A stretch of 64,000 nt of DNA. Source: Chlorops oryzae (Eukaryota > Arthropoda > Insecta > Diptera > Chloropidae). The stretch is taken from contig CM035806.1 of assembly GCA_020466095.1 (NCBI GenBank), positions 59,162,722 to 59,226,721 of the forward strand, written 5' to 3'. Under the pieces are notes generated by a model. That model searched no databases and had not been told where the DNA came from. It worked only from the letters and a program-made list of their open reading frames with translations. Positions 55,124-57,398 of this stretch are shown here, piece after piece; positions within the stretch are counted from its first letter, which is position 1, and every line of letters begins with the position of its first letter. Both the position numbers and the translations under genes were made by a program.

Positions 55124-57253
55124 ATGGCGTATAGAGCACATGAATCTCCGGGCGACGACCTTTTAGGCAAACATTTCAAAATTTATACCGACCATAAACC
55201 ACTGAAAGGAATAGCAAATTTAAAAGAGCAAGACACGAGATTAGGACGTTTTAGATTAAAACTTTTACAATATGACTTCGAAATTCTTTATAAACCTGGG
55301 AAGAACAACCTTAACGCGGATGCATTAAGCAGGCTTCCGAGTTCAGAGAGACCAAAAGGAGTAGTTACCCGATCAATGTCACAAGACACTCACGAACAAT
55401 TAGACGAATTACAAAACGTAATTGCGAATGACAATCTAAACGAAGATACAGCGGTGGTGCTTACTGATCCAATAGAAATACAAAAGGTGATGAAAATTTT
55501 CCATGACACCCCAATAGGAGGCCATAAAGGTTTTGAAAAAACCTATTCGCGAATCAGAGAACAATATAAATGGGAGGGCATGCAACAACAAATTAGAAAC
55601 TACATTAAAGCATGCGAACTTTCCCAGAAAAACAAAAGCTCTCGAGTAGACAAAATGCCTATGTCAATAACAGACACACCCCATAGACCTTTCGATAAAG
55701 TTTTTATGGACATAGTCGGTCCACTTCCCATTTCGTCCAGGGAAAATAAATACATTCTTACATTTTTAGATGACTTTTCAAAATATTTTGTATGTACAGC
55801 TATCCCAGATGCAGAAGCATCAACAGTAGCTAGAGCTTTTTTCAATGAAATCATTTCAAAATTTAATATCCCAAAAACGCTAATAACAGACAATGGGACC
55901 AATTTTACATCAAAACTCTTCAATGAAGTTTGTAAAATTCTTGGAATAAAGAAATCACAAACTTCACCCTACCACCCCCAAGCCAATGGTGCTCTCGAAA
56001 GGAGTCACCGACCTCTTGCGGAATTTCTCCGAAATTTTGTCAATGAGGATGGCACGAATTGGGATGAATGGCTGCATCATGCGATGCATGTACACAACAA
56101 CACAGTACATACATCCACAAAACAAACACCATGCAGAACACTTTTCGGCTTCGATTTCGAAATTCCCATTAAATTAAAACATAAACCGAGTCCACTGTAT
56201 AATTCAGACGATTACAGCAAAATATTAAAATTCCAAATCCAAAGAAGCCACGAAATAGTTAGAAATAATCAAAAGAAAGCAAAAGAGAATTCAAAAAAAT
56301 ACTATGATAAGAAAACGAAGATGAGGAATTTTGCAGTGGGCGAGAAAGTTTGGATTAAAAATCAGAACAGAATAAATAAATTTTCGGCAATCTGGGAAGG
56401 TCCTTATGAAGTCGTGTCCATTCCATCGACAAGTAATGTGCGATTGCGAATAAAAGGAAAAGAAAAAACGTTTCATAAGGATTTACTCAAACCTTTTGAA
56501 GATAAAATTGGCACAATCGAGACACTAAAAGAACAAGAATTAAACACTTTTTTAACAACAAAAAGTTCAGAACAGATATCAAACGAATTCAATAAGCTGA
56601 ACCAAAATATAGAAAATGGCAGAATAGACACATTTGCGAAAAATAAATCAAAAAATCGTTATTCAAATATACCCTGTTTTGAACACAGTAGAGTAAAGCT
56701 AAGTTCATCCGAACAATCAAATTATATCCATGCGAATTTTGTTGATGGATTTGACAGAAAAAGAGAATACATTGCCACTCAGGGCCCATTAATAAATGCC
56801 GTAAATGACTTTTGGCAAATGGTGTGGGATCAAAATTGTTATATCATAGTTATGCTATCGGGGATACAGGAAGATGGAACAGAAAAATGTTTTCAATATT
56901 GGGGAAAAAATACAGACACGTGCGTTAAGTCCAACAGTTTCATTATAAAGACGTTGAAAATAAATAAGACCGACTCTGGTATACAGAGCGAATTATTTTT
57001 AAAAAATCTGGAAACCAGAGAAGTCAGAAAAATTCTCCACTGGCAATTTTTAAACTGGCCGGACAATGGCACTCCGGAGCCAGCACTTTTACTAAAATTC
57101 TGGTTGGAAATACAAAATCACCAAAATTCGATAATAACAGAATATAGTTTGTCCAAAATAATAATACACTGCAGCGCCGGTATTGGCCGAACAGGTCCTT
57201 TGATAGCAATTGATATTGCCTTAAGGACCCTAAATTCAGGATCCAAAATGTAG
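55124..57253 (+). CDS. pol: RNase H-integrase-PTP polyprotein of PTP element B, 709 aa
   Basis: A single uninterrupted frame. The first 12 residues come from the TIR element; real similarity begins at LLGKHFKIYTDHKPLKG (RNase H). Integrase: GGHKGFEKTY (His pair), CELS where a second zinc Cys is expected, MDIVGPLP, ITDNGTNF, NGALERSHR (all three DDE acids), and IWEGPYEVV (GPY/F). After a linker of about 50 residues, the PTP starts at about residue 507: NRYSNIPCFEHSRVKL, NYIHANFVDG, YIATQGPL, NDFWQMVWDQN, CFQYWGKN, NWPDNGTPEP and HCSAGIGRTG (57,167-57,196). A one-base insertion near 57,248 ends the frame in helix alpha4; the rest (REQRAGMITCMKQYKFVYDV) follows to 57,398. Retroviral Pol proteins do not carry a phosphatase. 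Confidence 0.92.
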   Translation: MAYRAHESPGDDLLGKHFKIYTDHKPLKGIANLKEQDTRLGRFRLKLLQYDFEILYKPGKNNLNADALSRLPSSERPKGVVTRSMSQDTHEQLDELQNVIANDNLNEDTAVVLTDPIEIQKVMKIFHDTPIGGHKGFEKTYSRIREQYKWEGMQQQIRNYIKACELSQKNKSSRVDKMPMSITDTPHRPFDKVFMDIVGPLPISSRENKYILTFLDDFSKYFVCTAIPDAEASTVARAFFNEIISKFNIPKTLITDNGTNFTSKLFNEVCKILGIKKSQTSPYHPQANGALERSHRPLAEFLRNFVNEDGTNWDEWLHHAMHVHNNTVHTSTKQTPCRTLFGFDFEIPIKLKHKPSPLYNSDDYSKILKFQIQRSHEIVRNNQKKAKENSKKYYDKKTKMRNFAVGEKVWIKNQNRINKFSAIWEGPYEVVSIPSTSNVRLRIKGKEKTFHKDLLKPFEDKIGTIETLKEQELNTFLTTKSSEQISNEFNKLNQNIENGRIDTFAKNKSKNRYSNIPCFEHSRVKLSSSEQSNYIHANFVDGFDRKREYIATQGPLINAVNDFWQMVWDQNCYIIVMLSGIQEDGTEKCFQYWGKNTDTCVKSNSFIIKTLKINKTDSGIQSELFLKNLETREVRKILHWQFLNWPDNGTPEPALLLKFWLEIQNHQNSIITEYSLSKIIIHCSAGIGRTGPLIAIDIALRTLNSGSKM

Positions 57254-57398
57254 ATTACCCGACACAGTAAGAATACTTCGCGAACAACGCGCGGGCATGA
57301 TAACGTGCATGAAACAATATAAATTTGTGTATGACGTTTTTGAACTGCTACGTCAAACAACAGTTGAAGCACAAAATTTAATAGTTAGTAGATTTTAG
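57254..57398 (+). pseudogene. Frameshifted C-terminal end of the PTP domain, element B
   Basis: After the frameshift at about 57,248 (AAAATGTAGATT against AAAATTAGATT in copy A), the other frame reads RLPDTVRILREQRAGMITCM and KQYKFVYDVFELLRQ, the Q-loop helix and end of a PTP. It stops at about 57,397. So the domain was complete before a very small indel. Confidence 0.8.

What the first reader, a model, noticed from the sequence alone, without database searches (positions are those of the whole stretch)
55124..57398. Gypsy Pol fused in frame to a protein tyrosine phosphatase
Seen: one 709-aa frame with RNase H, complete DDE integrase, GPY/F module, then a classical PTP with KNRY-like, WPD and HCSAGIGRTG motifs. 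Known: errantivirus Pol normally ends with integrase; PTP genes occur in baculoviruses and bracoviruses of insects. I do not recall any described LTR element with a Pol-PTP fusion. Inference: the element delivers a phosphatase with its integrase, possibly acting on host phosphotyrosine signalling, on RNA 5' phosphates (as some viral PTPs do), or on the particle itself.
Basis: partly seen in the sequence, partly recalled or inferred. Interest (0 to 1): 0.93.

Follow-up and report, generated by a model that had tools for sequence, protein, structure and literature searches.

The report
Retroelement integrase fused to tyrosine phosphatase
A high-copy family of retrovirus-like elements in this unnamed (probably insect) genome ends its enzyme polyprotein with a tyrosine phosphatase that natural selection has kept, a combination not seen in the papers searched, which suggests that these genomic parasites carry a host-type signalling enzyme along with their integrase.

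Summary
The fusion is real and not a one-off. The window holds five copies with phosphatase after integrase. The whole genome gave 151 PF00102 matches; of the 150 listed, 31 lie in stop-free frames of 1500 aa or more. Of 68 read, 63 have integrase just upstream on the same strand, 55 in the same frame, 43 without a stop between; 5 lack it and look like host genes. Five longer frames hold RNase H, integrase and a near-complete PTP. Ten subfamilies form one PTP clade apart from four host PTPs. Catalytic Cys and Arg are kept in 66 of 66 copies, WPD Asp in 64, the Q-loop Gln (PTP1B Q262) in 4. PTP dN/dS is below 1 in 9 of 9 subfamilies with two or more copies. Some copies also show gag, baculovirus-F-like env, an Ulp1-like protease and a conserved antisense ORF; one has LTRs. 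The reported 709-aa frame is itself a damaged copy: its ATG lies in an insertion and its PTP tail is out of frame. PTP function is inferred. Other insects and Repbase could not be searched.

The parts
55109..57253 (+). Copy C: open frame with end of RNase H, integrase and most of PTP (the finding)
55475..55642 (+). H2C2 zinc-binding domain of integrase
   Evidence: residues 123-178
55682..55978 (+). Integrase core rve (DDE)
   Evidence: residues 192-290
56393..56497 (+). GPY/F-like module (WEGPYEVV...KTFHKDLLKPF); motif name recalled
   Evidence: read by eye
56498..56641 (+). Linker of about 48 residues between integrase and PTP
   Evidence: linkers of other copies
56642..57241 (+). Classical PTP domain, profile 1-199 of 234
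57167..57196 (+). PTP loop HCSAGIGRTG (catalytic Cys, Arg)
57254..57398 (+). C-terminal PTP residues of copy C in another frame (damaged copy)
52659..55157 (.). Insertion with inverted ends splitting the pol of copy C; supplies the ATG of the reported ORF (ends uncertain by a few bases)
   Evidence: gap against copy B; letters, by eye
52254..52658 (+). Upstream piece of pol (RNase H start) of copy C
58179..58712 (-). Antisense ORF of copy C downstream of PTP, conserved in the family
30160..32767 (+). Copy B: RNase H, integrase, PTP (three stops)
33731..34234 (-). Antisense ORF of copy B (one stop)
34257..35100 (+). Env of copy B (Baculo_F; RKRR then GLINAIG), broken
59033..60885 (+). Copy D: integrase and first half of PTP, truncated
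38029..39905 (+). Gag with zinc knuckles, upstream of copy E (assignment to E inferred)
   Evidence: 47% identity over 229 aa to gag of a PTP-bearing element
40636..41025 (+). Copy E: integrase C-terminus and start of PTP, with stops, ending at an assembly gap
4320..6080 (-). Copy A: RNase H and integrase
3446..4255 (-). Copy A: PTP (HCSAGINRTG, WPDKG), one stop
2668..3474 (-). Copy A: C-terminal half of env with transmembrane-like stretch
1305..1868 (-). Remains of Ulp1-like C48 protease ORF downstream of copy A (assignment inferred)
62514..63350 (-). C48 protease-like ORF, probably of another element of the family

Best explanation
This is a lineage of env-carrying Gypsy-type (errantivirus-like) endogenous retroelements whose Pol polyprotein has a classical protein tyrosine phosphatase as its last domain, straight after the integrase. 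Shown here: RNase H-integrase-PTP in one frame in many copies; ten subfamilies with one PTP clade; catalytic residues kept; purifying selection on the PTP; recent copies. Further genes are shown in part of the copies: gag, env, an Ulp1-like C48 protease after env, and an antisense ORF between PTP and env (the one copy followed from LTR to LTR has no antisense hit). Inferred: the PTP was captured once by the common ancestor of these subfamilies; it is translated as part of Pol, packaged with integrase, and works in the newly entered cell on phosphotyrosine proteins of the host or of the particle, to the element's benefit. The widespread change of the Q-loop Gln suggests slow turnover or lingering on the substrate. 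My confidence in anatomy, multicopy nature and selection is about 0.95; in delivery with Pol and action on phosphotyrosine about 0.5.
For: 151 PF00102 matches in the own genome, 31 of the 150 listed in stop-free frames of 1500 aa or more (counted by hand). 63 of 68 stretches read have integrase upstream on the same strand, 55 same frame, 43 uninterrupted, 34 open to the 5' end of the stretch. Pfam finds both domains in 10 of 10 subfamily representatives and RNase H+H2C2+rve+PTP in 5 of 5 longer frames. Cys 66/66, Arg 66/66, Asp 64/66. 21 element PTPs split from 4 host PTP domains with support 100/98. Within-subfamily PTP pN/pS 0.08-0.47 in 9 of 9 subfamilies with two or more copies (integrase 0.12-0.53); in the 16 of 45 between-subfamily pairs where PTP dS could be computed (1.4-3.2), 0.07-0.27. 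Neutral simulation at distance 1.0: 17% identity, about 11 stops per copy, C, R and D kept in both copies in 1 of 200. Env Baculo_F 32.1 bits, gag, LTRs of 162 bp with 1 mismatch, TG...CA, purine tract.
Against: No expression, protein or enzyme data. Q262 equivalent kept in only 4 of 66 copies, so activity may be weak. PTP evolves about three times faster than integrase (mean dN 0.39 against 0.13). The 43 copies used for dN/dS were chosen for an uninterrupted frame, within-subfamily ratios have no intervals, and two rest on a single pair. Window copies B, C and D give ratios whose intervals include 1. 8 of 63 loci have PTP and integrase in different frames and 12 more have stops. No target-site duplication at the one copy with both LTRs. 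PR and RT were not read; only frame length implies them. The AF2 model was too poor to use (mean pLDDT 49.7).
Confidence: 0.85

Rival explanations
1. The PTP is a passenger: a host PTP cDNA was trapped once beside a pol gene and has been copied along without function.
For: PTP diverges faster than integrase; the five window copies are all damaged; dN/dS between near copies B, C and D is not distinguishable from 1.
Against: Ten subfamilies; Cys and Arg in 66 of 66 copies, an uninterrupted frame into PTP in 43 of 63; PTP ratio below 1 in 9 of 9 subfamilies; neutral drift would give many stops.
Confidence: 0.04
2. The PTP domain works mainly as a phosphotyrosine-binding tether for integrase (as the chromodomain is thought to do in chromoviruses), choosing integration sites or holding the complex on phosphoproteins; catalysis is secondary.
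For: It sits directly behind the integrase C-terminus in the uninterrupted copies; the Q-loop Gln that (recalled) speeds hydrolysis of the phosphocysteine is kept in only 4 of 66. Chromodomains sit at the C-terminus of Pol (PMC12440569, passages).
Against: WPD Asp kept in 64 of 66 and Cys in 66 of 66, more than binding alone should need. No integration-site data.
Confidence: 0.2
3. The PTP acts on the element's own Gag, Env or Pol phosphorylation (assembly, uncoating) rather than on host signalling.
For: Virion location would follow from fusion to Pol (inference).
Against: No phosphosite data; rapid PTP divergence fits a changing host target as well.
Confidence: 0.2
4. It dephosphorylates RNA 5' ends, as some viral PTP-fold enzymes do.
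For: PTP fold.
Against: It is a classical PTP with the KNRY phosphotyrosine loop (Tyr in 61 of 66) and scores far better to PF00102 than to the dual-specificity family.
Confidence: 0.03

Closest known systems
Errantivirus / env-carrying Gypsy elements (Metaviridae)
   Same: gag with zinc knuckles, RNase H, H2C2-DDE-GPY/F integrase, Baculo_F-like env with basic cleavage site and transmembrane-like stretch, LTRs
   Different: PTP as last domain of Pol, C48 protease ORF after env, antisense ORF between PTP and env; the word phosphatase does not occur in the main text of two insect ERV papers (PMC12992720, PMC13172572, term searches only)
Chromoviruses (Gypsy elements with a chromodomain at the C-terminus of Pol)
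   Same: an extra domain at the end of Pol (PMC12440569 passages)
   Different: enzyme-type PTP, not a chromodomain; env present
Ginger1 DNA transposons (Gypsy-like integrase with C-terminal OTU or Ulp1 domain)
   Same: Gypsy-type integrase with GPY/F followed by a captured regulatory enzyme; Ulp1-like protease in the repertoire (PMC2836005 passages)
   Different: DNA transposon with terminal inverted repeats; the added domain is a protease, not a PTP
Orchid Gypsy elements with an AlkB-like m6A demethylase ORF
   Same: Gypsy element carrying an added regulatory enzyme (PMC9289625 abstract)
   Different: plant, extra ORF, RNA demethylase
Bracovirus PTP gene family
   Same: virus-borne single-domain PTPs of insects, only some catalytically functional (PMC3573978 passages)
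   Different: separate genes on proviral DNA circles, not fused to Pol; sequences could not be compared here

Membership tests
Errantivirus-like Gypsy (Metaviridae) | LTRs with TG...CA ends and a purine tract before the 3' LTR | tested here: met
   the one copy tested: 162 bp, 1 mismatch, AAAGGGGGAGGGA before the 3' LTR
Errantivirus-like Gypsy (Metaviridae) | 4-bp target-site duplication (recalled) | tested here: inconclusive
   flanks of that one copy do not match; no other copy read
Errantivirus-like Gypsy (Metaviridae) | Pol with RNase H then H2C2-rve integrase | tested here: met
   5 of 5 long frames
Errantivirus-like Gypsy (Metaviridae) | protease and reverse transcriptase in the same Pol | not tested
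   region not read; frames of 1507-1849 aa leave room for them
Errantivirus-like Gypsy (Metaviridae) | Baculovirus-F-like env with basic cleavage site | tested here: met
   Baculo_F 32.1 bits, cut-off 24.1; env hit in 33 of 63 loci within the 0.9-1.9 kb read
Errantivirus-like Gypsy (Metaviridae) | Pol ends with integrase | tested here: not met
   PTP follows in frame in 55 of 63 element loci; the loci were chosen by their PTP, so this says nothing on how many relatives lack it
Classical PTP (PF00102) | HCx5R loop and WPD Asp | tested here: met
   Cys and Arg 66/66, Asp 64/66
Classical PTP (PF00102) | Q-loop Gln equivalent to PTP1B Q262 | tested here: not met
   4 of 66 (one X and one gap among the rest); second Q-loop Gln 50 of 66
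Chromovirus | chromodomain after integrase | tested here: not met
   Pfam lists none at E 0.001 in 10 and 5 frames
Ginger1 | DNA transposon with TIRs and no RNase H | tested here: not met
   RNase H in 5 of 5 long frames, LTRs in one copy
Bracovirus or baculovirus PTP lineage | closest relatives among those viral PTPs | not testable with these tools
   no such sequence found in viral contigs or phages

The most novel reading that the evidence does not exclude
A lineage of complex insect-type retroviruses has taken up two host-type regulatory enzymes (a tyrosine phosphatase welded to integrase and an Ulp1-like deconjugase) plus an antisense gene. The phosphatase, with its Q-loop altered so that it lingers on its substrate, rides with integrase and rewires phosphotyrosine signalling or steers integration in the germ line of its host.
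Probability: 0.3. Interest if true: 0.95.

Novelty: new variant of a known kind. Interest (0 to 1): 0.86.

Why it matters
Added Pol domains in LTR elements are rare and have been informative about how elements meet their hosts (chromodomains, m6A demethylase). A phosphatase kept by selection in ten subfamilies would make phosphotyrosine signalling a testable target of retroelements, and an antisense gene and an Ulp1-like protease in the same elements suggest an accessory gene set like that of complex retroviruses. Much of this can be tested with single protein domains.

Tried and rejected
Passenger hypothesis: tested by dN/dS, residue conservation and simulation, rejected. Chance or assembly artefact: rejected by genome-wide copies. 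B, C and D as independent proof of mobility: not used, since the 5' ends of B and C lie in a local duplication (20126-30564 against 45258-52658, 97.8-98.2% identity).

Led nowhere: viral contigs with PTP, with a PTP motif (8 loci, no PTP relative) and with integrase; phages; prokaryote genome contigs; NCBIfam (transposase models under their cut-offs only); AF2 model. The eLife survey of metazoan errantiviruses (10.7554/eLife.108449) is not held.

Papers: ten searches gave listings, of which I saw titles and abstract beginnings; none named an LTR element with a PTP. Term passages only were seen of PMC12992720, PMC3573978, PMC13172572, PMC6338049, PMC2836005, PMC11952523, PMC12440569, PMC5704228, PMC8905726 and PMC3856412, and the outline with abstract of PMC9289625. 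The last three hold PTP and errantivirus or LTR terms, but in separate contexts (baculoviral and bracoviral PTPs, an expanded clam gene family).

Not done: host species not identified; no tree with bracoviral or baculoviral PTPs, no RNA data, no search of other insects, no search for close relatives without PTP beyond the window.

Full report
1. Observation. The 709-aa frame (55124-57253, open from 55109) is there. Pfam finds the end of RNase H, H2C2, rve and Y_phosphatase (201.6 bits) in it. It is a damaged copy. Compared with copy B it is interrupted at about 52659-55157 by DNA with inverted ends (by eye), so its ATG comes from foreign DNA, and the last part of the PTP lies in another frame. 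Four more PTP-bearing copies lie in the window: B 30160-35100, D 59033-60885, E 40636-41025 and, on the other strand, A 6080-1305. A is a distinct subfamily (PTP 48%, integrase about 77% aa identity to C); its integrase C-terminus is out of frame with its PTP. All five are damaged. Another Gypsy element at about 6494-14054, whose integrase is 34% identical, ends with integrase and has no PTP hit.

2. Whole genome. The window's genome (442 Mb, 1044 contigs) gave 596 first-look candidates for PF00102, of which 150 were scored; 151 matches were counted and 150 listed. Of the 150 listed, 31 lie in stop-free frames of 1500 aa or more (counted by hand). I read 68 of the 150: 8 loci and 60 fetched. 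In 63 an integrase hit lies upstream on the same strand, in 55 in the same frame, in 43 with no stop from integrase to PTP, and in 34 the frame is open to the 5' end of the stretch. The other 5 have no integrase hit and look like host PTP exons. The 43 uninterrupted copies fall into 10 subfamilies at 80% PTP identity. One representative of each has rve and Y_phosphatase above cut-off in one uninterrupted reading, and five longer frames show RNase H, H2C2, rve and a PTP of 224-233 residues.

3. The PTP. Across 66 element copies (63 loci and window A, B, C) the catalytic Cys and the loop Arg are kept in 66, the WPD Asp in 64 and the KNRY Tyr in 61. The Q-loop Gln equivalent to PTP1B Q262 is kept in 4 of 66 (one subfamily; two of the 66 have no letter there), the second Q-loop Gln in 50. 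From memory, Q262 of PTP1B helps to hydrolyse the phosphocysteine, so slow turnover is predicted, not shown. Against solved structures the family profile scores 210.1 bits to the first domain of receptor PTP S and 239.8 to PTPN9; copy C alone gave 136.6 to the first domain of LAR and 161.4 to PTPN9.

4. Origin and selection. A maximum-likelihood tree puts 21 element PTPs on one side of a branch (100/98) from 4 host PTP domains. The program warns of long host branches; this shows one element clade, not the donor. The rank correlation of PTP and integrase dN over 45 pairs of representatives is 0.62, in line with joint descent; the pairs are not independent, and agreement of the two trees was not tested. 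Within subfamilies the pooled PTP pN/pS is 0.08-0.47 (9 of 9 subfamilies with two or more copies; first 8 copies used for the largest; two subfamilies rest on one pair; no intervals), integrase 0.12-0.53. Between subfamilies PTP dS is saturated in 29 of 45 pairs; the other 16 (dS 1.4-3.2) give 0.07-0.27. In the window, A against C gives 0.18 for PTP and 0.09 for integrase with intervals below 1, while B, C and D have wide intervals that include 1. A neutral simulation at distance 1.0 leaves 17% identity, about 11 stops per copy, and C, R and D in both copies in 1 of 200 pairs. The copies were chosen for uninterrupted frames, which may lower the ratios somewhat.

5. Rest of the element. In one copy (C1:117345887-117358111, 12.2 kb) two 162-bp LTRs differ at 1 position, begin TG and end CA, and a purine tract precedes the 3' LTR; the flanks show no target-site duplication. 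That copy has a gag frame, RNase H-integrase-PTP (its open frame is 1066 aa), a 497-aa env frame with Baculo_F match and a C48 (Ulp1-like) frame of 278 aa, 48.8 bits, but no antisense hit. Within the 0.9-1.9 kb read after the PTP in 63 loci, env is hit in 33, an antisense ORF in 21, C48 in 11 and none of these in 23, of which 19 belong to one subfamily. In two subfamilies some copies have antisense ORF and env, and others a C48 ORF closer by, with env not hit or cut short. The antisense ORF (108-263 aa) recurs in 5 of the 10 subfamilies at 31-54% identity to that of L034. Of 31 pairs computed, the 15 with dS of 0.1 or more give dN/dS 0.19-0.45 with intervals below 1; closer pairs are mostly uninformative and one is at 1.16. 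It has no Pfam match over cut-off. The C48 His, Asp and Gln-Cys motifs are kept in 10 of 10 copies that cover them, while the window copy at 62514-63350 lacks the Asp. C48 dN/dS is 0.13 and 0.17 in the two diverged pairs where dS could be computed, and 0.44-1.48 with wide intervals in six close pairs.

6. How it most likely works. Shown: Pol frame continuity, selection, residues. Inferred: made as Gag-Pol with PTP, packaged, delivered with integrase, acting on phosphotyrosine proteins of host or particle. Rivals are an integrase tether, action on particle proteins, RNA phosphatase, and passenger; see the fields.

7. Known kinds. Pol C-terminal additions exist (chromodomain; PMC12440569 passages). 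Gypsy-like integrases with C-terminal OTU or Ulp1 exist in Ginger1 DNA transposons (PMC2836005 passages). A Gypsy element with an AlkB-like enzyme exists in orchids (PMC9289625 abstract). Two insect ERV papers (PMC12992720, PMC13172572) do not contain the word phosphatase in the main text. None of ten paper searches listed a PTP in an LTR element, and three papers holding both kinds of terms use them in separate contexts. This is absence in one open-access library only. I therefore rate it a new variant of a known kind.

8. Limits. Host unnamed (an insect by inference from the env type). Protein database off. No other insect genome, no RNA, no bracoviral comparison. Counts are lower bounds.

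Noticed in passing
58179-58712 (-), 33731-34234 (-); also L012, L034, L055, L061: Antisense ORF between PTP and env, 31-54% aa identity between subfamilies, dN/dS 0.19-0.45 in the 15 more diverged pairs; no Pfam family. An antisense gene in an LTR element.
   Followed up: partly
62514-63350 (-), 1305-1868 (-); L018, L043, L078: Ulp1-like C48 protease ORF at the 3' end of the same elements, after env; in two subfamilies some copies have env not hit or cut short with C48 closer.
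   Followed up: partly
20126-30564 and 45258-52658: Local duplication at about 98% identity carrying LINE-like ORFs and the 5' ends of copies B and C.
   Followed up: no
30160-34320 against 55158-58796: Copies B and C differ unevenly: dS about 0.02 in integrase, 0.09 in PTP, 0.23 in the antisense ORF, suggesting recombination or conversion between lineages.
   Followed up: no
6494-14054 (-): Another Gypsy element (gag, RT, integrase by eye) without PTP; repeats at both ends 75% alike.
   Followed up: no
35606-37684: Foldback element: arms 95-100% complementary in the main pairs, downstream of the env of copy B.
   Followed up: no
40970-44586 (-): BEL/Pao-like pol and gag next to copy E, across an assembly gap (41026-41125); assigned by eye.
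   Followed up: no
L051, L055, L058, L062: The only subfamily that keeps the first Q-loop Gln has lost the second; another (L067, L069) has lost both.
   Followed up: no
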